Source: Ralstonia pickettii (GTDB lineage: Bacteria > Pseudomonadota > Gammaproteobacteria > Burkholderiales > Burkholderiaceae). From it: a stretch of DNA of 64,000 bases. The stretch is taken from positions 310,001-374,000 of the forward strand of contig NZ_JFZG01000003.1 of NCBI RefSeq assembly GCF_000607165.1. Direction: 5' to 3'. This document shows positions 9,763-63,200 of the stretch, piece after piece. The notes under the pieces are model-generated. The model had not been told where the DNA came from. It did no database searches and worked only from the letters and a program-made list of their open reading frames with translations. Numbering within the stretch: position 1 is the first letter of the stretch; every line of letters begins with the position of its first letter. The position numbers and the translations under genes are program-made.

Positions 9763-10665
9763 CTACTGCATCATCAGGGCCTGCCCCAGGCGCGGGTCTT
9801 CCAGCTTGTCGACCCACCATTGCAGCGCCTTGCCGCGCATGTTGTTGCGCCAGGCAACCTGAAACGTGCCGGCACGCTTGTCTTCGGTGGTTTCCTTGGC
9901 GATCAGCACGCCGGAATCCAGATACGGTTGCGCCAGCGGCACCGGCAACCAGCCGCAGCCCAGGCCACGAATCTGCGCCTGCACCTTGTCAGCCATGGAC
10001 GGCACCACCAGCGTGTCCTGTCCGGCCATCACGCCGATGGTGCGTGCGGGCAGATTGCGTGACGTATCTCCGACGGCAACGATGCGATGCCGCGTGATGG
10101 CGGTTGCAGGCAAAGGCTCCTCCATGTGCGCCAGCGGATGATGTGCCGCCACCGCAAACACAAAGGGAATGTTGCCCACCGTGCGTGTCTGAATGCCCTG
10201 TACCTGCATCACCTGCGCCGGCCCGATCAGCAGATCCGCGCGGCCTGAGAGCAGTGCGTCCCACGTGCCGGCCAGAACCTCACGGCTGAAGCGCAGTCGC
10301 GTGGCGGTGTTCTCCGCGTAGAAATCCTGGATGACTGGCATAAGTGCGCGAAAGTGCACGAGATCGTCGACTACGATGGTCAGTGTGGCTTCCCACCCGG
10401 TGGCGAGGCGTTTGACGCGGCGCGCGAGTTCGTCGGCGGCCTGCAGCAGGTGACGGCCTTCGTCGAGCAATGCGCGGCCAGCGGGCGTGAGTTCCGCCCG
10501 ATGGCGGCGGCGGTCAAACAGCAGGACATCGAGATCGTCTTCCAGCTTGCGCACCACATATGTCAGCGCCGACGGCACTTTGCCCAGTTCGTGCGCGGCG
10601 GCGGCAAAGCTGCCCTTGCGTTCGATCGCGTCCAGCACTTCCAGAGATTCCAGTGATAGCGCCAT
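9763..10665 (-). CDS. LysR-family transcriptional regulator of the pirin operon (predicted)
   Basis: A 300-aa LTTR with an N-terminal winged HTH ([40 protein letters not shown]) and a LysR_substrate effector domain (about residues 90-295). It is divergent from the pirin gene across a 106-bp region, the classic LTTR arrangement, so it most likely controls pirin and the following WrbA-like gene (inference). Its inducer is unknown; quinones or electrophiles would fit the target genes. Confidence 0.87.
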
Positions 10666-54488: not shown

Positions 54489-55232
54489 ATGACTGCAATT
54501 GATCTGAACGCCGACCTTGGCGAAGGCTGCGATACCGACGAGGCGCTCCTCACGCTGGTGAGTTCCGCCAACATCGCCTGCGGCTGGCACGCCGGCGACG
54601 TCAACACGATGCGCCAGACCGTCGGCTGGGCGCTGCGCCAGGGCGTGTCGATCGGCGCGCATCCGAGCTTTCCTGATCGCGAGAATTTTGGCCGCACTGA
54701 AATGCACCTCCCGCCGGATGAAATCTACGCGGGCGTGCTGTTCCAGATTGGCGGGCTCTCTGCCATCGTGCGTGCGCAGGGCGGCAAGCTGGCCCACGTG
54801 AAAGCGCACGGCGCGCTGTACAACCAGGCTTCGCGTGACCGGCCTCTGGCCGTCGCCATCGTGCGCGCGATCCGTGATTTCGATCCGTCGCTGGTGGTGT
54901 TCGGTCTGGCGGGCGGTGAGCTGGTCAAGGCAGCGCGCGAACTTGGTCTGCAGGCCAAGGAAGAGGTGTTTGCCGATCGCGGGTACAACGCCGACGGCTC
55001 GCTCGTCAAACGCGGCACGCCGGGTGCCTTGATCGACAGCGAAGATGCCGCGTTGGACCAGACGCTGACGATGGTGCGCGAGCAGCGCGTAAAGGCCATC
55101 GACGGCACGTGGGTTCCGATCCGCGCGGAAACGGTTTGTCTGCACGGCGACGGCGCGCATGCGCTGGCGTTCGCGCGACGCATTCGGGAACGGCTGGGCA
55201 GCGAGGGTATCGCTGTTCGCGCCGGCGCCTGA
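54489..55232 (+). CDS. pxpA: 5-oxoprolinase subunit A (PxpA, LamB/YcsF family)
   Basis: A 247-aa protein. The N-terminal signature is [20 protein letters not shown] then [33 protein letters not shown] and [19 protein letters not shown] hold the His/Asp residues of the TIM-barrel active site. It completes PxpABC, which turns cytosolic 5-oxoproline into glutamate. A terminator-like hairpin follows. Confidence 0.94.
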
Positions 55233-55238
55233 GCCACG

Positions 55239-55264
55239 GCCCCGTCCTTCCAACGGGGCTTTTT
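55239..55264 (+). terminator. Intrinsic terminator between pxpA and the DUF969 gene
   Basis: GCCCCGT/ACGGGGC (7-bp perfect stem, 7-nt loop) followed by a T-run. It would partly separate pxpBCA from the downstream membrane genes, which still lie on the same strand; attenuation or read-through is possible. Confidence 0.8.
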
Positions 55265-55288
55265 ATTAACTTGGGGGGGAAGCACCAC

Positions 55289-56014
55289 ATGGGTACGGCA
55301 GTGAATCTATGGCCGCTGATCGGGGTGGTCGTCATCATCGCGGGATTCATCCTGCGATTCAATCCGATGCTGGTGGTGGCTGTGGCCGCCATCGCCACCG
55401 GCTTTGCGGCATCGATGTCCATCGGCCAGATCCTGACGGCGATCGGGACGGGCATCATCAAGACGCGGACGTTGCCGCTGATCATCCTGCTGCCGCTCGC
55501 GGTGGTGGGTTTGCTCGAGCGTCACGGCTTGCGTGAACACGCGCAGAACTGGATCTCGCGCATCCAATCGGCCACGGTGGGTCGTCTGCTGATCGTCTAC
55601 CTCGCCGTGCGCGAGCTGACGGCGGCGGCGGGCCTAACGAGCCTCGGCGGGCATCCGCAGATGGTGCGTCCGCTGCTGGCCCCGATGGCAGAAGGCGCCG
55701 CCGAAAACCGCTTCGGCAAGCTGCCGGCGCCGGTGCGCGAACGTCTGCTGGCCTTCTGCGCCGCCACGGACAACGTCGGCCTGTTCTTCGGTGAGGACAT
55801 CTTCGTGGCCTTTGGCGCCATCGCGCTGATGCACACGTTCCTGCTCGGCTCGGGCATCGACGTGGAACCGCTGCACATCGCGGTGTGGGGCATCCCGACT
55901 GCGGTCTGCGCGTTCCTGATCCACTCGGTGCGCCTCAAGCGCCTGGACGGCTGGCTTGCCCGTGAAATGGGTGCCGCCGCTAACACCAACGCGGCCGCGG
56001 CCAAGCAGGGGTAA
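55289..56014 (+). CDS. DUF969 family membrane protein
   Basis: A 241-aa membrane protein with about six hydrophobic segments (for example WPLIGVVVIIAGFILRF and TLPLIILLPLAVVGLLERHG). LREHAQNWISRIQSATVGRL and RELTAAAGLTSLGGHPQMVR are strongly conserved-looking cytosolic or re-entrant stretches. The start ATG 55289 follows a G-rich Shine-Dalgarno. It is paired with DUF979 (3-bp gap) and lies between pxpBCA and pcp. The pair is a good candidate for a pyroglutamate transporter (inference); no function is proven here. Confidence 0.8.
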   Translation: MGTAVNLWPLIGVVVIIAGFILRFNPMLVVAVAAIATGFAASMSIGQILTAIGTGIIKTRTLPLIILLPLAVVGLLERHGLREHAQNWISRIQSATVGRLLIVYLAVRELTAAAGLTSLGGHPQMVRPLLAPMAEGAAENRFGKLPAPVRERLLAFCAATDNVGLFFGEDIFVAFGAIALMHTFLLGSGIDVEPLHIAVWGIPTAVCAFLIHSVRLKRLDGWLAREMGAAANTNAAAAKQG

Positions 56015-56017
56015 GCC

Positions 56018-56974
56018 ATGATTCTGTCGATCAATTATCTGTACTGGCTGGCCGGGATCATCCTGACGATCACCGCGCTGATGACCTTTGCCGACAAGGG
56101 CCACCCGCGTCGCTGGACCACGGGCCTGTTCTGGGCGATCTTCGCCGTCATCTTTCTCGTTGGCGACAAGATTCCGCCGATTGCGGTGGGCGTCGGCGCC
56201 GTGGTGATGGCACTGCTGGCCGGCACGGGCGGTGTGACGCTGGGCAAGCATGGCGAACTGCCGGCAGAAGAGCGCCGCGCATCCGCCAAGCGCCTGGGCA
56301 ACCGCCTGTTCATTCCAGCACTGACCATTCCGCTGGTCACTGTCATCGGCAGCGTGTTCCTCAAGGACATCAAGATTGGCGGCGATCTGCTGCTCGATCC
56401 GAAGAACCAGACCTTCGTCTCGCTGGGTCTGGGCTGCATCATCTCGCTCGCGCTGGCGTGCTGGTTGACGCGCGACACGCCGGTGCAAGCCATGCGTGAA
56501 TCGCGCCGGCTGACGGAGTCGCTCGGCTGGGCGCTGGTGCTGCCGCAGATGCTGGCCATGCTGGGTCTCGTCTTCGCCGATGCCGGTGTGGGCAAGGCCG
56601 TGGCGCACCTGACCACCGCTTACATCAACATGGACTATCGCCTCGTCGCGGTCATCGTCTATTGCGTGGGCATGGCGCTGTTCACCGTCATCATGGGCAA
56701 CGGCTTTGCGGCCTTCCCGGTCATGACGGGCGGCGTGGGCGTGCCGATCCTGGTGGGCGTGTTCCATGGCAACCCGGCGGTGATGGCGGCCGTCGGCATG
56801 TTCTCGGGCTACTGCGGCACGCTGATGACCCCGATGGCGGCCAACTTCAATGTCGTGCCGGCTGCGCTGCTGGAGCTTTCTGATAAGAACGCTGTGATCA
56901 AAGCGCAAGTCCCGACCGCGCTGCTGTTGCTTACAGCCAATATCGTGCTCTTGTACTTCCTGATGCTTCACTAA
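56018..56974 (+). CDS. DUF979 family membrane protein
   Basis: A 318-aa membrane protein with about eight to nine hydrophobic segments. LYWLAGIILTITALMTFADK and IMGNGFAAFPVMTGGVGVPI then LVGVFHGNPAVMAAVGMFSG resemble re-entrant loops of carboxylate transporters. DUF979 is always adjacent to DUF969 in genomes where I know it, so they probably act as one two-subunit carrier. Its neighbours deal with 5-oxoproline. Confidence 0.8.
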   Translation: MILSINYLYWLAGIILTITALMTFADKGHPRRWTTGLFWAIFAVIFLVGDKIPPIAVGVGAVVMALLAGTGGVTLGKHGELPAEERRASAKRLGNRLFIPALTIPLVTVIGSVFLKDIKIGGDLLLDPKNQTFVSLGLGCIISLALACWLTRDTPVQAMRESRRLTESLGWALVLPQMLAMLGLVFADAGVGKAVAHLTTAYINMDYRLVAVIVYCVGMALFTVIMGNGFAAFPVMTGGVGVPILVGVFHGNPAVMAAVGMFSGYCGTLMTPMAANFNVVPAALLELSDKNAVIKAQVPTALLLLTANIVLLYFLMLH

Positions 56975-57114
56975 TCGTGTTTAATGCGTCGCGTGCGGTG
57001 TGCGTCACGCGGGCGGCTCTTAGCCGGCCGACGCCACCAAGCGCGATCGCTGCCCGCGAGACAAGGGCATGCGGTCGTGTAGACCTCGCATCGTGCTCTT
57101 CTCCGGGGGGATTC

Positions 57115-58140
57115 ATGAGCAGCCAGATGACGAGCGGCCGTTCCATGTCGGGACGCCGCTTTCTTTGTGTTCTTGCAGTCAGCGCCCTGTCGCTGATTTC
57201 CGCCGCGCAAGCCCGCGCGGAAACGCTCCGAGTGGCCACGCCGTATCCGGCCCTCAATTTCCATACGCAAAACCTGCAGGCCTTCGCCAGCGCCGTCAGT
57301 GCCGCCACCAACGGCGGGCTCAAGCTGGACGTCTATCCGAACGGCACGCTGCTCAAGCCGGCCGCCATCTTTGATGGCGTCAAGGACGGCAAGGCCGAAG
57401 CGGGCGAGGTGATGCTTTCGACGCTGGCCCAGCGCGATCCGCTCTTCGGCGTGGATTCAATTCCCTTCGTGGTGTCGGGCTACAACGATGCGCGCCTGCT
57501 GTGGGATGCCTCGCGCAGCCACATCGAAGCGCTGATGAAGGCCAACGGATTGCGCCTGCTGTACGCCGTGCCCTGGCCGCCGCAGAACCTGTATTCCGAA
57601 ACACCGATCGCCCGTTTGTCCGACCTGAAGGGACATCGTTTGCGCACCTATAACGCGGCGCAAAAGCGCATTGCCGAGCTGTACGGTGCGCAGGCCGTGC
57701 AGGTGGAGGCCGCCGACCTGACCGCCGCGATTGCCGGCGGCCGGATCGACACTATGGTCACCTCGCCGTCCACCGGTTTGGAAACGAAGGCTGGCCAGCG
57801 CATGACCTATTACTACAAGGTCAACGCGTGGATCCCGAAGAACGCCGTGTTCGTCAACGAGGCGCGCTTCGCCAAGCTACCGCCGGCGATGCAGCAGACC
57901 GTGCTCAAGCTCGCCAAGGAGTACGAGACGCGCGGGTGGGATTCGAGCCGCCAGACCTATGAGCGCGATGAAGCCGAACTCGCCAAGACCGGCGTGCGCG
58001 TGCTCAATCCGGACGTGACGCTGCAGGGCGATATGCGCCGCCTGGGCGAGCGTCTGACGCGCGAATGGCTGCACACCGCGGGCACGGAAGAAGTCGACAT
58101 CCTGTTGAACTTCGAGAACAAGCGCAGCAAGGCAAACTGA
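57115..58140 (+). CDS. TRAP-type (DctP family) solute-binding protein
   Basis: A 341-aa periplasmic receptor. The signal peptide runs to about residue 36 (LISAAQARAETLRVATPYPA). PNGTLLKPAAIFDGVKDGKA is the DctP substrate-site region, and the Arg in GHRLRTYNAAQKRIAELYG lies where DctP proteins hold the carboxylate. It ends in a helical tail, NFENKRSKAN. ATG 57115 is chosen, with a GGGGGG Shine-Dalgarno. No DctQ/DctM membrane partners are in the window; the nearest membrane proteins are DUF969/DUF979. It may feed pyroglutamate or another carboxylate to them (inference). Confidence 0.85.
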   Translation: MSSQMTSGRSMSGRRFLCVLAVSALSLISAAQARAETLRVATPYPALNFHTQNLQAFASAVSAATNGGLKLDVYPNGTLLKPAAIFDGVKDGKAEAGEVMLSTLAQRDPLFGVDSIPFVVSGYNDARLLWDASRSHIEALMKANGLRLLYAVPWPPQNLYSETPIARLSDLKGHRLRTYNAAQKRIAELYGAQAVQVEAADLTAAIAGGRIDTMVTSPSTGLETKAGQRMTYYYKVNAWIPKNAVFVNEARFAKLPPAMQQTVLKLAKEYETRGWDSSRQTYERDEAELAKTGVRVLNPDVTLQGDMRRLGERLTREWLHTAGTEEVDILLNFENKRSKAN

Positions 58141-58218
58141 CGCCGCAACGCGCTTGGGCATGATGTTCGACGGACGTTTATCATCGTTTTAGTCCTACGC
58201 TGCACGCAGGAGAACGTC

Positions 58219-58866
58219 ATGCCTACCGTCCTCGTCACCGGTTTCGATCCGTTTGAGAACGAACCCATCAATCCGTCGTGGGAAGCCGTGCGCACCCTCG
58301 ATGGCCAAGGAATCGCCGGTGCCGAGATTGTCGCGCGCCAGTTGCCGACCATCTTTGGTGAATCCAACAAAGTGCTCGGCAAGTTGCTGCAGACGCTGCA
58401 GCCGGATGTGGTGATCGCCGTGGGGCAGGCTGGCGGCCGCGCCGAGATGGCCATCGAGCGCATCGCCATCAACGTCGACGACGCACGCATTGCTGACAAC
58501 GCCGGTAAGCAACCCATCGATATCGCCATCGCAAGTGATGGGCCGGCCGCGTATTTTTCAACGTTACCGATCAAGGCTATCGTGCGCGAACTGCGTGCGG
58601 GCGGCGTTCCTGCATCGGTCTCGCAGACAGCGGGTACCTTTGTCTGTAACCACGTCTTCTATGGGCTGATGCATGCCATCGCCCGCCACAAGCTGCCGAC
58701 GCGCGGCGGCTTTATCCACATCCCGTATCTGCCGTCGCAGGCAGCCAAGCACCCGGGGCAACCGAGTATGGCGCATGACACCATCGTCACGGGCCTGCGC
58801 ATCGCCATCGAGACAACGCTGCGCACGCTGCACGACGTACGCGAAACGGGCGGCCAGCTGCACTGA
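58219..58866 (+). CDS. pcp: Pyroglutamyl-peptidase I
   Basis: A 215-aa cysteine peptidase (C15) that removes N-terminal pyroglutamate from peptides. TVLVTGFDPFENEPINPSWE at the start, GQAGGRAEMAIERIAIN (catalytic Glu), QTAGTFVCNHVFYGLMHA (catalytic Cys) and FIHIPYLPSQAAKHP (His) give the full triad. It would release 5-oxoproline, the substrate of the upstream PxpABC, and so closes a coherent catabolic operon. Confidence 0.95.
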   Translation: MPTVLVTGFDPFENEPINPSWEAVRTLDGQGIAGAEIVARQLPTIFGESNKVLGKLLQTLQPDVVIAVGQAGGRAEMAIERIAINVDDARIADNAGKQPIDIAIASDGPAAYFSTLPIKAIVRELRAGGVPASVSQTAGTFVCNHVFYGLMHAIARHKLPTRGGFIHIPYLPSQAAKHPGQPSMAHDTIVTGLRIAIETTLRTLHDVRETGGQLH

Positions 58867-58892
58867 GCCCGCGCAGCAGCTCGGCGCGCTGG

Positions 58893-59630
58893 TCAGTCCG
58901 TGAAGCGCGTATGCCGTTGCAGTTCAATGCGCGCCGACGCGCTTGGGGCCGCATAGCCAGAGGCGATTGGAGCGGTGTCGACCGGTGCCGGTTCAAGTTC
59001 GATGAACGCAGATTCGTCGTCGTGCGGTGTGGCCGGGTGTTCCAACTCGGGCAGCCTCGGCGCTGGCTCGGTAGCCCGCACAAGCTTGCGCAGCCGTATC
59101 GATTTCTCCGGCAATTGCGTCACGGCCGGCGATGCAGCAGCGATGACTGGCGCGGCAACTTCCACACCGTCCAACGCTATGTCTGGAGCCTGCGCGACCG
59201 CCGCTGCGGCTGCGGTAACGGCTTCGGATTCCTCGGGCTCGTGGGTTTCTATTAGTGCGACCTGCTCGGTAGCAAGGTTCTCGTGCGGAACGCCCGGTGT
59301 GGTTGGCTGGGCGATGACGGCCACGGTGGTCTGATCCGACACTTCGGCCTGCTGCCGATGTTGCCGATGCGGCCTGGTCTGCCAGCCAAGCAGCGCAGCG
59401 GCCAATGTGCAGGCCACGCCAATTGACAGCACGGTCATGCGTTGACGCCATTGCCCGCGAGTAGTTGCGCCGGCTTCACCGTAGGTTTTGGCGGCAGGAT
59501 CGGCGGGCGTACTCACCTGTGTGCCGACGATGGCCAGCGCCTCGTCGAGTGGTGGCCCGAAAGGCGGCGGCATACGCACCAGACCCGGTAGGCGCAGGTG
59601 TCCGTCAATGATGAAGTGGGGCGATTCCAA
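58893..59630 (-). CDS. Hypothetical single-pass membrane protein, Ala/Glu/Pro-rich
   Basis: A 245-aa protein that I do not recognise. An N-terminal cytoplasmic part of about 65 residues (LPGLVRMPPPFGPPLDEALA) is followed by one hydrophobic helix VLSIGVACTLAAALLGW at residues 66-84. A low-complexity periplasmic region rich in Ala, Glu, Thr and Pro makes up the rest. The composition suggests a membrane-anchored linker or an envelope spacer. It is convergent with pcp and 190 bp from the DUF2968 gene. Confidence 0.55.
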   Translation of the reverse strand: MESPHFIIDGHLRLPGLVRMPPPFGPPLDEALAIVGTQVSTPADPAAKTYGEAGATTRGQWRQRMTVLSIGVACTLAAALLGWQTRPHRQHRQQAEVSDQTTVAVIAQPTTPGVPHENLATEQVALIETHEPEESEAVTAAAAAVAQAPDIALDGVEVAAPVIAAASPAVTQLPEKSIRLRKLVRATEPAPRLPELEHPATPHDDESAFIELEPAPVDTAPIASGYAAPSASARIELQRHTRFTD

Positions 59631-59820
59631 GTCCGTCTCCGCTGATGGCCGCAGCGGACGTCAAAGCAAAGCCGGCTGCGCAAGCAGGCGCCATGCTAAG
59701 CGGTGGGTGGACGGTGGTCGATCAGATTGATCCTAAGTCGATGCGGGCCGCACCGAAGGCTGGGGAGGTCGCTGGCCTGCCGTTTCTGCGCCAAGCCAGG
59801 AATGTGAATATCGCAGACGT

Positions 59821-60453
59821 TTACGGTGCTGGCGACCAGTGCGGATCGTTGAGCTGCTTTTCCAGCAGGCGGATCTGCTGCTGCAGCGATTCAACCTGGG
59901 TCTGGTACGCGCGGCGCTCGATGTCCAGCGCCTTGGTCTCCTGCCGCATGGTCTGCTGCTCGGTCAGCATCTTCTGGCGCTGCGCCTGCATGATGCGCAC
60001 TTCCTGGCTGAGCGATGCGGCACGCTGCTGAGCTGCCTGGGCTTCGCGCTCCAGTTGCGCCTTCTGGCCCGCCGTGACGGCGCGGCGCAGATCATCTTCG
60101 GCCCATGTCCGGGTCTGGCTCGCCAGTGTGTCGTATGCGCCTTCGGCCGGAGCGACCGACGCAAACTTGTACACACGCCACAGTTCTTTGCGATACGACA
60201 GGGCAACGTAGGCCGTGGTGTCTTCGTTGACGAGCAGCAGGCTGGTGCCGTAGTCGCCGTTGTAGGTCGTGCGCAGTTCGGTCAAGCGCTTCTGCGCCAG
60301 CAACTGCTGCAGCTCGGCAACGGTGCCGCCCGACGCTGCCGTGGACACTGCCGGCGCTTGTGGCGCGCTGGCTTGCGCGTGGACGAAACCGGCGCCTGCA
60401 ACCGAGGCTGCGGCAACGAACGAGAGGGCGGTTCGGCGAAAAACGAGAGACAT
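59821..60453 (-). CDS. DUF2968 family exported coiled-coil protein
   Basis: A 210-aa protein. The signal peptide MSLVFRRTALSFVAAASVAG is cleaved near VHAQA. A globular part follows (GTVAELQQLLAQKRLTELRT, YGTSLLLVNEDTTAYVALSY, RKELWRVYKFASVAPAEGAY), typical of DUF2968. Residues about 130-205 are a long coiled coil (AQLEREAQAAQQRAASLSQE). It is periplasmic and of unknown function, found mainly in Burkholderiales. Confidence 0.8.
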   Translation of the reverse strand: MSLVFRRTALSFVAAASVAGAGFVHAQASAPQAPAVSTAASGGTVAELQQLLAQKRLTELRTTYNGDYGTSLLLVNEDTTAYVALSYRKELWRVYKFASVAPAEGAYDTLASQTRTWAEDDLRRAVTAGQKAQLEREAQAAQQRAASLSQEVRIMQAQRQKMLTEQQTMRQETKALDIERRAYQTQVESLQQQIRLLEKQLNDPHWSPAP

Positions 60454-60488
60454 CGCAAGGTTCAGAAATCGGAGCCGACGCGACTATA

Positions 60489-60896
60489 TCAGCTTTGCAC
60501 TCCAGGCCCTGCGGCAAGCGGTCCGATTTGACGTTCCGCAGCTTTTGAATCATGGCGGCGTCGCGCCTCGGCGACGATGCACTGCCACTCGTTGCGGGAA
60601 ACGCGCTCGCGAAACATCTCGATCAGGAAGTCGCCCAGGTTCTGACGTGGCCTGGCCATGCCAAGCGTGGCTTTCAAGCGTCTCAATTCGTTCTGCAGTC
60701 GCGTGACCCGTGCCCGCGCCTTGGCCTGTTTCAGCGAACCGGCAGGGAATGTTCTTACTGAGGCTTCGGCTGCTGCGAGCGCACGCACAAGATCGGCACG
60801 TTGCTGTTGAAGCGGCTCAGTCCCGTCGTTGCGATTACCGAGGGTATCTTGCAAAGGAGATTGCCTGTCCTCTAGGCGAGCAAGGGCGTGGCGCAT
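60489..60896 (-). CDS. Hypothetical 135-aa protein under a C4-like RNA element
   Basis: I do not recognise this protein. Residues 25-80 are helical and coiled-coil-like (RADLVRALAAAEASVRTFPA, ARARVTRLQNELRRLKATLG), followed by NLGDFLIEMFRERVSRNEWQ and a short basic tail. The start ATG has an excellent Shine-Dalgarno (GGAG, spacing 7). That site lies at the edge of a second copy of the a'/b' segments of the neighbouring C4-like RNA, so its translation may be controlled by RNA pairing. It is a candidate target gene of the phage-type immunity RNA, or a small toxin/antirepressor (inference). Confidence 0.6.
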   Translation of the reverse strand: MRHALARLEDRQSPLQDTLGNRNDGTEPLQQQRADLVRALAAAEASVRTFPAGSLKQAKARARVTRLQNELRRLKATLGMARPRQNLGDFLIEMFRERVSRNEWQCIVAEARRRHDSKAAERQIGPLAAGPGVQS

Positions 60897-60903
60897 TTCG
60901 ATG

Positions 60904-60948
60904 CTCCTGTATCGGGTCTAGGTACCCGAACCCCGACGCCAATCGGGG
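60904..60948 (-). promoter_or_regulatory. Second C4-like a'/b' element overlapping the ribosome-binding site of the 135-aa ORF
   Basis: On the minus strand: hairpin CCCCGATTGGCGTCGGGG (60931-60948, loop with TTGGCG), a small CGGGT/ACCCG hairpin (60913-60928), then GATACAGG (60906-60913) running into GGAG (60904-60907). The two key segments are the same as in the upstream antisense RNA. They are complementary to the target at 60969-60989, so a cis interaction could hide the Shine-Dalgarno. Confidence 0.6.
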
Positions 60949-60968
60949 TGGCCGGGCACAAGGCAAGG

Positions 60969-60989
60969 TTGGCGTACCGGCGATACAGG
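60969..60989 (-). promoter_or_regulatory. Predicted target site of the C4-like antisense RNA
   Basis: Minus strand reads CCTGTATC, 6 nt, ACGCCAA. The antisense RNA carries TTGGCGT, 9 nt, GATACAGG. Both blocks pair perfectly (8 and 7 bp) and in antiparallel order, as in P1/P7 C4 with ant mRNA and P4 CI RNA with its leader. Confidence 0.6.
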
Positions 60990-61043
60990 AAACCGGCGAG
61001 CGCGAGCGCTCCCTCACCAAGGCCCGGCCATAGGAGGCGCTTG

Positions 61044-61181
61044 ATGAACGGGCGTAAAAAAACCGCCAGCCGGCGGTTACCCGCCTGTATCTGCTCTCGG
61101 ACGCCAATCCGAGGTCACGTTGTGTGCGTGACGGGCGGCAGTATAGCGCAGGGGTTGCGCGCTATTTGTGCCAAGTCGTGA
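61044..61181 (+). CDS. Possible 45-aa ORF opposite the C4-like RNA
   Basis: An ATG at 61044 has a perfect AGGAGG (61032-61037) 6 nt upstream and opens a 45-codon frame beginning MNGRKKTASRRLPACICSRT and ending near GLRAICAKS. It runs antisense across the whole C4-like RNA. The strong ribosome-binding site argues for translation, but it could be a by-product of the conserved RNA sequence on the other strand. Function unknown. Confidence 0.35.
   Translation: MNGRKKTASRRLPACICSRTPIRGHVVCVTGGSIAQGLRAICAKS
61056..61133 (-). ncRNA. C4/P4-CI-like phage immunity antisense RNA
   Basis: A predicted RNA of about 78 nt. A -10 box TATACT lies at 61140-61145 (minus strand), placing the 5' end near 61133. 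In order: hairpin GTCACG/CGTGAC (61114-61132); hairpin CTCGGATTGGCGTCCGAG (61096-61113) with TTGGCG in its loop; single-strand GATACAGG (61084-61091); hairpin GGCGG-GTAA-CCGCC (61072-61085); terminator AACCGCC-GGCT-GGCGGTT with T-run (61056-61078). The last two hairpins share bases and exclude each other. Size, order and pairing to a downstream site match the C4 antisense RNA of phages P1/P7 and CI RNA of satellite P4. The reading frame across the downstream part (GRALVRERSRSPVSCIAGTP) resembles the Icd/Ash frames of such loci. Confidence 0.7.
61140..61145 (-). promoter_or_regulatory. -10 box of the C4-like RNA
   Basis: TATACT on the minus strand, 7 nt before the predicted RNA 5' end. No good -35 is found at 16-18 bp; TTGGCA occurs at 61169-61174 but is 23 bp away. 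Confidence 0.4.
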
Positions 61182-61258
61182 AGCTGAGATGCCCCGATGC
61201 CGACCGGGCGGCGCGTAAGCGCTCTCTCGCCAAGGCACGGCGAAGGAGAGGGCGGGTG

Positions 61259-61843
61259 TCAGCGGTTCTGCATCTCCTTGAGCCACAGGCTCATCAGCCC
61301 AGCGCGGCCACGCACGCCGAACTTGCGATAGACGTTTGTGATGTAGGAGTGCGTGGTTGAAACGGCAAGGCCGAGCTGTTCCGCAATCTGCTTTTCTGCG
61401 GCCTCGGTCAACAACAGTTGCAATACCCGGGACTCGTGAGGCGCCAGACGCGCCTGCAGTTGCGCCAAGGGGCTGCGCTCTGCCAGCGTCCTCGTTGCGG
61501 TGACGTTACGCGCCACGCCAATGCGCAGTTGGTGCTCGACGCTCCACTGTGCCGACCACGACAACTGGACATCGGTGCCAAGCTGGTGGCGATAGCGATT
61601 CTCGAATCCAGTGCACTTTGCACCTGCCTGAACGCGACCCGCTTCCCGTTGCGTTCTGTCGCGGTCGTCCGGCGCTACAAGCTCGAGCATGCATTGCTCG
61701 ACCAGCTCGGATGGCCGATAACCAAGGATGTCCTGCCACGCCGCATTGGCGTGACGGATCCGCCCACGCTCGTCGACCAGAAAGACGCCATCCGGAAGAC
61801 TATTGGCCAAAGCGATCGCGCTCACATCATTGAGGACTTCCAT
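61259..61843 (-). CDS. PAS domain / LuxR-type helix-turn-helix regulator
   Basis: A regulator of 194 aa from the ATG at 61841-61843. The PAS domain begins ANSLPDGVFLVDERGRIRHA and runs to about residue 120. The LuxR HTH follows (LAPHESRVLQLLLTEAAEKQ, then LGLAVSTTHSYITNVYRKFG). The frame stays open to an ATG at 62062, and a start at 61960 or 62062 would add an upstream helix; no start has a good Shine-Dalgarno. It lies just upstream of the C4-like RNA on the same strand, in the accessory stretch. It may sense a small ligand or redox state through PAS. The regulated genes are unknown. Confidence 0.78.
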   Translation of the reverse strand: MEVLNDVSAIALANSLPDGVFLVDERGRIRHANAAWQDILGYRPSELVEQCMLELVAPDDRDRTQREAGRVQAGAKCTGFENRYRHQLGTDVQLSWSAQWSVEHQLRIGVARNVTATRTLAERSPLAQLQARLAPHESRVLQLLLTEAAEKQIAEQLGLAVSTTHSYITNVYRKFGVRGRAGLMSLWLKEMQNR

Positions 61844-62062
61844 GGTCTGCCGCGTTTGGTTGCAATACGAAAGAGAACTGATGGCCAGGCGCCGATGTGC
61901 AATACCAAGCTGGGTCGCAATCCCAGGCAGCGACAAACAGTTGCACAAGGCTGTGATCATGACAGCGCTGCCAGCACTTGCCGCGCTCCCGGATATGTTG
62001 ATCCGCGCCCGCTGCACCAAAAAAAAGCAGCCGGCACGAACGGCGTCTGCTGGCGGGTTCAT

Positions 62063-62398
62063 GCCCTCTAATTAGCAGGGTGCCAGTCAGAATAGCGTCT
62101 GCTATCGTTCCCGACAATATACGGTGTCAGCATCATGCCAAATAAGAATGTTCAGCACCTGTGCGGTTCCATGGGACCGACGCGGGGCGGGCAACGGGGA
62201 AAACAGCAAGTCGTCTGGCCCTCGCAGGCCAAACCTGACTCGTAGACACGGGGTGAGCGGATTCTCCCCTTGTCTTTTCGAGTTGGCGATCCGGCGACAT
62301 GGCTTCGGCGTTGATGCGCAAGCCCTCACCAAGAAGCTTATTGGTGAGGGAAAAATAAAAAGAGTTGTACCTTTTTTGAAGAACGGGGAAGAGTCTTC
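62063..62398. other. 336-bp region with low-GC patches; one tiny ORF and an inverted repeat
   Basis: A 36-codon frame (62135-62245, plus, MPNKNVQHLCGSMGPTRGGQ start) is open but has no clear Shine-Dalgarno. A 10-bp perfect inverted repeat CCCTCACCAA/TTGGTGAGGG lies at 62323-62350, followed by an A-rich run (62351-62362). Base composition is lower in GC than the surrounding genome. This is accessory sequence; I recognise nothing in it. Confidence 0.35.
62323..62350. repeat. 10-bp perfect inverted repeat in the accessory stretch
   Basis: CCCTCACCAA-GAAGCTTA-TTGGTGAGGG, followed on the plus strand by A-rich DNA. It lacks a T-run in either direction of transcription, so it does not look like a terminator. 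It could be an operator for the HTH protein encoded downstream. Confidence 0.4.
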
Positions 62399-62653
62399 AT
62401 GCGCTCGACCAACCCCAAGCCCGGGGGGCTTGGGGCGGCGCTTGCGTTCTTGGCTTTGGTTAACGGCGCGCAGCAGCCGCGGTCAGGTTATTCCATTAAG
62501 AAAAAGAATAATCAATACGTCCGTTTTGATTTAGCGCCCGACTACTATGGATTTGATTTGCAAGGTAAGGTTGTACCAAGATCGTGGACGCTATTTTGCG
62601 GTGTTGGTCGCACCGGACACGATGTGCTCCAGCACAGGGCGAAACGCAGCTGA
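62399..62653 (+). CDS. Possible 84-aa ORF overlapping the HicB/Ner-like gene
   Basis: An ATG at 62399 has a good Shine-Dalgarno (GGGGAAGAG, about 6 nt spacing) and opens 84 codons beginning MRSTNPKPGGLGAALAFLAL. A 9-bp hairpin CCCCAAGCC/GGCTTGGGG (62412-62434) lies inside it. It overlaps the next gene by 107 bp in a different frame. Either it is a small real protein whose translation leads into the next gene, or an ancestral N-terminus separated from it by a frameshift. Confidence 0.35.
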   Translation: MRSTNPKPGGLGAALAFLALVNGAQQPRSGYSIKKKNNQYVRFDLAPDYYGFDLQGKVVPRSWTLFCGVGRTGHDVLQHRAKRS

Positions 62654-62996
62654 AGCTCTAACAAATCTAGGCCGGTCTATGGCCGAGAATCCTGTCCCTC
62701 AACCGGTCGATTTCTCGACAGAGTCGAAGGAGCGCAAGAGCGCTAATCAGGTTGGCGGGGTCACGCCCGCTCCTCGCGAATTTCCCCGCGCCATGCCTAC
62801 CGTAAAACGTCTTCTCAACGAGCGTTTCGGCAAGGCCACCTTGCGTGAACTTTCAGAAAAGCTGGGTTTGGACGACGTCACTCCGCAACTGCTGTCGTCT
62901 TCCATCGCGGGCAACGGGGCGAAGCGCGTTCGTCTGGCCATTGCCAAGGCGCTTGGAGAGGATCCCAATGCGCTTTGGCCGATGGCGCGGCACTAA
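62547..62996 (+). CDS. HicB-like N-terminus fused to Ner/XRE-like DNA-binding domain
   Basis: A 149-aa protein. Residues 1-50 (VRLYQDRGRYFAVLVAPDTM, AAEALTNLGRSMAEN) resemble the short HicB antitoxin fold. Residues 85-149 (PTVKRLLNERFGKATLRELS, KRVRLAIAKALGEDPNALWP) match the Ner/Nlp-type HTH in which ALG.xP..LWP is typical; Ner is the Mu phage repressor relative. No HicA toxin gene is visible next to it. It sits 114 bp from tRNA-Ser, as expected for a mobile-element regulator. The start ATG has no clear Shine-Dalgarno. Confidence 0.6.
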   Translation: MDLICKVRLYQDRGRYFAVLVAPDTMCSSTGRNAAEALTNLGRSMAENPVPQPVDFSTESKERKSANQVGGVTPAPREFPRAMPTVKRLLNERFGKATLRELSEKLGLDDVTPQLLSSSIAGNGAKRVRLAIAKALGEDPNALWPMARH

Positions 62997-63110
62997 CACG
63001 GCACGCGCTATTGAAGACCCGAAACTGGAAAAAGCGAAAATGCCCGCGGAACGGCGCTGTTAATCGACGCGGCGAGAGAAATTGGGAGTGCCTTGTAGCA
63101 AGGCAAGGAC

Positions 63111-63200
63111 TGGCGGAAGCGGTGAGATTCGAACTCACGGATGGGTCACCCCATCGGCAGTTTTCAAGACTGCTGCCTTAAACCACTCGGCCACGCTTCC
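63111..63200 (-). tRNA. tRNA-Ser (UGA)
   Basis: 90-nt tRNA on the minus strand with encoded CCA (TGG at 63111-63113 on the plus strand). The acceptor arm GGAAGCG pairs with CGCTTCC, the anticodon loop is CTTGAAA (anticodon TGA), there is a long variable arm typical of serine tRNAs, and the T-arm has GTTCGAATC. It lies between the accessory stretch and hemW. Confidence 0.96.

What the first reader, a model, noticed from the sequence alone, without database searches (positions are those of the whole stretch)
61056..61145. A C4/CI-type phage immunity antisense RNA in a chromosome with no visible prophage
Seen: a minus-strand -10 box, then four hairpins and a U-run terminator in about 78 nt. The RNA contains TTGGCGT (loop) and GATACAGG, which pair perfectly with a site about 100 nt downstream in the correct antiparallel order. 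The P1/P7 C4 RNA and the P4 CI RNA use this architecture to silence an antirepressor or to terminate replication-gene transcription. No integrase, replication or structural phage genes are visible within several kb, so the immunity switch may be a domesticated relic or may protect the host against related phages or satellites.
Basis: partly seen in the sequence, partly recalled or inferred. Interest (0 to 1): 0.8.

Follow-up and report, generated by a model that had tools for sequence, protein, structure and literature searches.

The report
Chromosomal C4 antisense RNA cassette relic
A short RNA of the kind that phages and their satellites use to silence rivals sits, with its matching targets and one small gene, in what looks like the surviving piece of an eroded mobile element beside a tRNA gene, where several related bacteria have kept it while changing its pairing code.

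Summary
The C4 call is right but the RNA was mis-placed. Rfam C4 (RF01695, 67.9 bits, cut-off 45) matches 60944-61035 minus. A third copy, a2/b2, overlaps the Shine-Dalgarno of a 135-aa ORF (60489-60896 minus).

The cassette lies between a luxR/PAS gene and DUF2968 in 10 of 16 genomes of the genus (intact in 8, decayed in 2), with tRNA-Ser upstream in 8 of 10. Two genomes have tRNA-Ser directly before DUF2968, so the window carries a 2.6-kb insert at the tRNA 3' end. The a-arm code differs between orthologs and changes together in leader, C4 and target. Distant ORF homologs sit in integrase/primase islands and, with a C4, on a phage-like plasmid. Best reading: the stripped immunity cassette of an integrative element, not a prophage.

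All 16 genomes hold 2-20 C4 matches. Of 146 examined, 131 match their own leader or target. Some orphan C4s carry other cassettes' codes. Transcription, silencing and immunity were not measured.

The parts
61140..61145 (-). -10-like box TATACT; no matching -35 box
   Evidence: sequence; promoter scan found none
61056..61133 (-). leader RNA (a1/b1; seqA- or isrK-like), two firm hairpins plus mutually exclusive antiterminator/terminator
   Evidence: RF01394 29.5 bits, below cut-off 50; fold z -2.21; attenuator model
61101..61107 (-). b1 TTGGCGT in a hairpin of the leader
61084..61091 (-). a1 GATACAGG, its last letters shared with the antiterminator stem
61056..61078 (-). intrinsic terminator of the leader
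60944..61035 (-). C4 antisense RNA
   Evidence: RF01695 67.9 bits, cut-off 45; fold -47 kcal/mol, z -3.74
60982..60989 (-). a' arm CCTGTATC in a loop of C4
60969..60975 (-). b' arm ACGCCAA of C4
60936..60942 (-). b2 TTGGCGT target
60906..60913 (-). a2 GATACAGG target, overlapping the Shine-Dalgarno-like AGGAG (60904-60908)
60489..60896 (-). ORF135, 135 aa, homologous to early genes of mobile elements, function unknown; predicted all-helical at low confidence (mean pLDDT 65.7); its last codons lie in host flank
60500..63110 (.). 2.6-kb insert between tRNA-Ser and DUF2968 (orf62547, luxR/PAS, cassette, ORF135)
   Evidence: empty sites in G009 and G013
61259..62062 (-). PAS-LuxR regulator upstream; orphan C4 copies sit just after its stop in G003, G005 and G015
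63111..63200 (-). tRNA-Ser(TGA), presumed integration site
   Evidence: L012 19111-19200

Best explanation
It is a complete C4/CI-type antisense cassette (leader a1/b1 + terminator, C4 RNA, a2/b2 over the ribosome-binding site, first target gene). It is most likely the surviving piece of an integrative element that entered at the 3' end of tRNA-Ser(TGA) in an ancestor within the genus and lost its integrase and replication genes. Proposed working: one transcript is made; the C4 part is cut out of it and pairs through a' and b' with (i) a1/b1 in new transcripts, which removes the antiterminator so that the leader terminates early, and (ii) a2/b2, which hides the Shine-Dalgarno of ORF135. ORF135 thus stays silent, and an incoming element with the same code would be silenced too. 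Shown by sequence comparison: the C4 match, the three matching copies, co-change of the code, the insertion site and retention across species. Inferred: transcription, processing, termination, translational silencing and trans immunity.
For: C4 covariance hit 67.9 bits. Own-code pairing in leader and target. Four codes among nine related cassettes in nine genomes, each changed in a1, a' and a2 together: GATACAGG, ATCGCAGG, GACAAAGG, GTCACAGG. Genus test: 131 of 146 C4 loci match their own leader or downstream stretch by 7 nt or more, against 6-7% of comparisons with other loci; 0 of 10000 permutations reach the observed sum, upstream or downstream. Among same-code relatives the RNA part is more conserved than its neighbours: against G014 and G015 the leader is 98.9%, C4 100%, a2/b2 98-100% identical, while ORF135 is 82-83% and hemW and DUF2968 92-96%. 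ORF135 pairwise dN/dS 0.13-0.56 over 36 pairs. Same place in 10 of 16 genomes, tRNA-Ser upstream in 8 of those 10, empty site in two others. ORF135 homologs beside integrase and primase genes in L125 and L126 and with C4 on a phage-like plasmid. With a1/b1 occupied the terminator forms in 8 of 8 leaders; when free it is absent from the best fold in 6 of 8.
Against: No transcript, processing or repression data. No -35 box. Within the C4 stems, co-change in 9 distinct sequences is not clearly above shuffles (3 of 28 pairs, reached in 78 of 500 shuffles; covariation score in 37 of 500). Against relatives with another code (G003, G005, G006, G007) the C4 is 88-92% and the leader 90-91% identical, no better than hemW and DUF2968 at 92-94%. 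No repeat of the tRNA end (attR) was found. In G001 and G008 neither tRNA-Ser nor hemW lies in the 20-kb stretch, so the upstream side has been rearranged there. ORF135 homologs in L124, L125 and L126 have no C4 above cut-off, so the gene is not tied to C4 everywhere. luxR and orf62547 also occur as a pair elsewhere without C4 (G009, G002), so the insert may be composite. Two of 8 free leaders already fold the terminator, and the occupied-state fold follows partly from the overlap of a1 with the antiterminator.
Confidence: 0.77

Rival explanations
1. Toxin-antitoxin-like pair: ORF135 harms the cell when made and C4 is its RNA antidote, so the pair is kept by addiction rather than by immunity.
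For: The nine intact ORF135 copies seen in the genus (eight at this site, one at G012:C17) all have a C4 with a matching code; where leader or C4 was lost or altered at this site (G008, G012:C3) the ORF is broken too. In Gifsy-1 a cassette of similar layout controls a toxic cascade (PMC4825925, abstract and sections 6, 12, 21).
Against: C4 occurs without its ORF or target in several places: stand-alone copies in G003, G005, G015 and in G068, where a2/b2 and the ORF start are gone. Conversely ORF135 homologs stand without C4 in L124-L126. ORF135 matched no toxin family above a cut-off; the PADLOC library was not searched.
Confidence: 0.25
2. Trans-acting host regulator: C4 has been recruited to control host mRNAs, as proposed for the C4-like sRNAs of Acinetobacter baumannii.
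For: Many copies per genome, mostly in conserved surroundings: 11 of 12 G000 loci align over 3 kb or more with a fetched G015 C4 locus. Proposed in print for A. baumannii (PMC5320573, passages).
Against: Most C4s keep a matching target in their own cassette (117 of 146 downstream). In G000 the pattern of the window's target pair occurs four times and only the window site has the C4-type spacer.
Confidence: 0.12
3. Dead relic: the cassette is a fossil with no present function.
For: Integrase and replication genes are gone; two of ten cassettes at this site are already broken.
Against: C4 100% and leader 98.9% identical in three relatives (G001, G014, G015) while DUF2968 and pcp differ by 4-8%; ORF135 dN/dS below 0.6 in all 36 pairs; code changes kept in step in three places.
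Confidence: 0.08

Closest known systems
C4 antisense RNA of phages P1 and P7 (Rfam RF01695)
   Same: Full-length model match above cut-off; two arms a' and b' matching an upstream and a downstream copy; target at a ribosome-binding site
   Different: Target is ORF135, not icd/ant (names recalled); no phage around it; here the a arm overlaps the Shine-Dalgarno, whereas PMC5320573 (passage) describes the b' loop doing so; RNase P processing untested
CI RNA / seqA-seqC immunity of satellite P4
   Same: Antisense RNA flanked by upstream and downstream complementary copies; tRNA-end location; ORF homologs in integrase-primase islands; early termination predicted
   Different: No integrase, primase or other satellite gene recognised in the insert; termination only modelled. 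P4 details from PMC4825925 section 21 and recall
IsrK / STnc1160 / orf45-anrP of prophage Gifsy-1 (RF01394)
   Same: Short leader RNA with terminator followed by a region with complementary sequence, then a small ORF
   Different: Leader scores 29.5 bits, below the cut-off of 50; ORF135 is not recognised as an antirepressor
Multi-copy C4-like sRNAs of Acinetobacter baumannii
   Same: Many C4-like RNAs in one chromosome with differing a' loops (PMC5320573, passages)
   Different: Here most keep their own leader or target (131 of 146), and orphans with other cassettes' codes occur; I did not analyse Acinetobacter
c4-a1b1 motif (Weinberg et al. 2010)
   Same: By its name the leader carrying a1 and b1 (inferred)
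   Different: Listed for gamma-proteobacteria and phages (table passage, PMC2864571); this one is in a beta-proteobacterium. The motif itself was not compared

Membership tests
C4 antisense RNA (RF01695) | Covariance-model score above the curated cut-off | tested here: met
   67.9 bits against 45
C4 antisense RNA (RF01695) | a' and b' arms complementary to flanking a1/b1 and a2/b2 | tested here: met
C4 antisense RNA (RF01695) | Compensatory changes in the stems | tested here: inconclusive
   3 of 28 pairs with two-sided change, 78 of 500 shuffles as high
C4 antisense RNA (RF01695) | Cut from a longer transcript by RNase P | not testable with these tools
   no RNA data
P1/P7 immunity operon | Controls icd and an antirepressor gene | tested here: not met
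   ORF135 has no Pfam or NCBIfam match above cut-off and no PHROG match at E 0.1; another G000 cassette (L016) does carry an antirepressor
IsrK (RF01394) | Model score above cut-off | tested here: not met
   29.5 against 50
P4 CI-type immunity | Antisense RNA causes early transcription termination through pairing with the leader | tested here: inconclusive
   fold model only
P4-like satellite | Integrase and primase genes | tested here: not met
   no PF00589 match on contig C3; none recognised among the insert's proteins scanned
P4-like satellite | Located at the 3' end of a tRNA gene | tested here: met
P4-like satellite | Flanking att repeats | tested here: not met
   no exact repeat of 10 nt or more of the tRNA in 55001-63113
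Type I toxin-antitoxin | Toxic small protein | not testable with these tools
   needs expression

The most novel reading that the evidence does not exclude
These chromosomes keep a resident set of C4 cassettes that seldom cross-match, and some stand-alone C4 copies act as an RNA memory: they carry the code of cassettes found in other species, sometimes at the same site, and would silence incoming or rival elements with that code.
Probability: 0.3. Interest if true: 0.85.

Novelty: new variant of a known kind. Interest (0 to 1): 0.6.

Why it matters
C4/CI RNAs are known from a few phages and satellites as superinfection immunity, with code differences deciding who excludes whom. Here the same kind of cassette has outlived its element at a fixed chromosomal place, its code changes between species in all three copies at once, and nearby stand-alone C4 copies carry codes of other cassettes. 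If active, this would be an RNA-only, code-based exclusion system resident in bacterial chromosomes, readable and testable from sequence. At the least it gives a natural series for how antisense specificity evolves.

Tried and rejected
Viral homologs of ORF135: the single IMG/VR hit (L106) carries the luxR/orf62547 order of the chromosomal site and is taken as host DNA, not as phage evidence. No hit in 50,697 phage records at E 0.01; one plasmid record among 72,556. The small-protein family of other G000 cassettes: one member had no match in plasmids or phages, members had none in PHROGs or NCBIfam, and the alignment none in viral contigs. Structure of ORF135 (three sequences aligned): four helices, mean pLDDT 65.7, pTM 0.42, too weak for a fold search, which was not run. 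Papers: no held paper has 'Ralstonia solanacearum' with 'C4 antisense RNA' or 'Ralstonia' with 'c4 RNA'; none has C4 antisense, satellite, tRNA and integrase together; the library lacks most subscription journals, so this is not proof of absence.

Rows left out: of 191 C4 matches in 16 genomes (sum) 146 were examined; 45 were not listed or not fetched. In the first 52-locus test six rows were dropped as empty, mis-oriented or duplicate; the larger test replaced it. In one search the loop-core trimming cut one orphan (G005:C3:1655832) to three letters, so it could not score. On rechecking I mended my own earlier count of loci shared with G015 (11 of 12, not 10), an earlier belief that tRNA-Ser flanks all intact cassettes (7 of 8) and my reading of G012:C3, whose C4 is altered at its 5' end.

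Full report
Organism. The genus is inferred as Ralstonia because ORF135 finds Ralstonia sp. SET104 and Burkholderiaceae bacterium 26, and their contig lengths equal those of G012:C3 and G001:C9.

What is there. On the minus strand, in order: a -10-like box (61145-61140); a leader of about 78 nt (61133-61056) with TTGGCGT in a hairpin and GATACAGG; an intrinsic terminator; a C4 RNA (60944-61035; RF01695, 67.9 bits, cut-off 45); then TTGGCGT and GATACAGG again, the latter overlapping the Shine-Dalgarno-like AGGAG of a 135-aa ORF (60489-60896). The C4 arms CCTGTATC and ACGCCAA match both flanking copies. The C4 folds alone at -47 kcal/mol, z -3.74.

Is it more than chance? Comparison decides. Nine related cassettes in nine genomes show four a-codes (GATACAGG in G000, G001, G014, G015; ATCGCAGG in G003, G005, G006; GACAAAGG in G007; GTCACAGG in G012:C17), each present in leader, C4 and target alike. 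Over 146 of the 191 C4 matches in 16 genomes, 117 match their own downstream stretch and 90 their own leader by 7 nt or more, 131 at least one of the two; other loci do so in 6-7% of comparisons, and 0 of 10000 permutations reach the observed sums. Change within the C4 stems is modest and not clearly above shuffles.

Where it came from. ORF135 is found in 10 of 16 genomes. The order orf62547 - PAS/LuxR gene - cassette - ORF135 - DUF2968 is shared by the window and seven others with an intact cassette. G012:C3 lost the leader, has an altered C4 5' end and a frameshifted ORF; G008 lost leader, C4 and the ORF's 5' half. tRNA-Ser(TGA) lies upstream in 7 of the 8 intact and in G012:C3; in G001 and G008 neither it nor hemW is in the 20-kb stretch. 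G009 and G013 have tRNA-Ser followed directly by DUF2968, 92 bp apart in G009. In the remaining four genomes DUF2968 has other DNA upstream and no tRNA in the 2.9-3.6-kb locus. The window therefore holds a 2.6-kb insert (about 60500-63110) at the tRNA 3' end, and the last codons of ORF135 are host sequence. No att repeat was found. Among 398 genomes of the family 20 have an ORF135 match, ten of them in this genus. Two of the others (L125, L126) lie beside a tyrosine integrase and a DUF927/Toprim primase; L126 also has an AlpA/excisionase-like gene and L125 an int-alpA RNA; neither has a C4 above cut-off. A Burkholderia anthina plasmid with ParB, Mor, tape-measure and tail-fibre genes has a C4 (75.8 bits) followed by a short ORF and an ORF135 homolog (45% over residues 62-132). 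Hence ORF135 looks like an early gene of satellite- or phage-like elements, and the window keeps the immunity end of one.

Is it kept by selection? Against G014 and G015 the leader is 98.9% and the C4 100% identical, while ORF135 is 82-83% and hemW and DUF2968 92-96%. Against G003, G005, G006 and G007, which have other codes, the C4 is only 88-92% and the leader 90-91% identical, below hemW and DUF2968 (92-94%). ORF135 shows dN/dS of 0.13-0.56. A recent exchange of only the RNA part could also explain the first figures.

How it likely works. Free leaders lack the terminator in the best structure of 6 of 8 cases, where a GGCGG/CCGCC antiterminator competes; with a1 and b1 occupied the terminator forms in 8 of 8. 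So C4 pairing should end transcription early, as described for P4 CI, and pairing at a2/b2 should hide the Shine-Dalgarno, as for P1 C4. P4, IsrK and C4 facts come from sections 6, 12 and 21 and the abstract of PMC4825925, passages of PMC5320573 and PMC12197685, and recall. Whether the short leader RNA also acts on C4 as a decoy is open.

Wider setting. G000 has 12 C4 matches, 10 above cut-off. The nearest PF00589 integrase on the same contig is 74 kb away; three of the 12 (C25, C3:51561, C5) lie within 55 kb of a contig end, and serine integrases, transposases and structural genes were not sought. Eleven of the 12 loci align over 3 kb or more with a fetched C4 locus of G015, so most appear resident. 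Within genomes, 11 ordered pairs in 5 of 16 genomes match another cassette's target by 8 nt or more. Fifteen of the 146 match neither own leader nor own target at 7 nt; 7 of 15 match a paired target elsewhere by 8 nt or more against 1.86 expected from shuffled loops, 3 of these 7 also in their own genome. At the window's own site, stand-alone C4s just after the luxR stop carry the window's code in G005 and G007's code in G003; the one in G015 has a code not seen among the paired cassettes. They score 56.7, 68.9 and 59.5 bits, above cut-off, and fold well (z -2.8, -4.4, -3.6), though only the G015 one has the canonical C4 shape as its best fold. They may be remains of replaced cassettes or retained immunities. 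Multi-copy C4-like RNAs are already in print for A. baumannii, so multiplicity itself is not new.

Verdict. A real C4-type cassette, mis-placed by about 100 nt, best read as the surviving immunity cassette of an integrative element at tRNA-Ser, probably still working. New variant of a known kind.

Noticed in passing
G000 loci L011, L013, L014, L015, L017, L018, L019, L021: Eight of 12 G000 C4 cassettes (by inspection; seven sequences aligned) precede a small protein of about 90 aa; the members tested had no PHROG or NCBIfam match, and several have a leader peptide like SGHRPASYPSPP in front.
   Followed up: partly
L058 (G015:C2:3302063-3302990), L313 (G005), L319 (G006): Clusters of three C4 matches within about 1 kb, two of them only about 40 nt apart.
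   Followed up: partly
L016, C4 at 10001-10086: A G000 C4 cassette in front of an antirepressor-like gene (PHROG 130, E 2e-41), the classical kind of target.
   Followed up: no
L123 9841-9932: In another genus a C4 with G007's a' code lies about 145 bp after tRNA-Ser(GCT), run into a headless ORF135-like frame without a2/b2.
   Followed up: partly
L127 (G012:C17:53272-53363): A second, more distant C4-ORF135 cassette at a different site in G012, with its own matching code.
   Followed up: partly
window 62547-62996: ORF inside the insert with a weak match to a phage repressor family (PHROG 769, E 0.004); it lies beside the PAS/LuxR gene in other genomes too.
   Followed up: no
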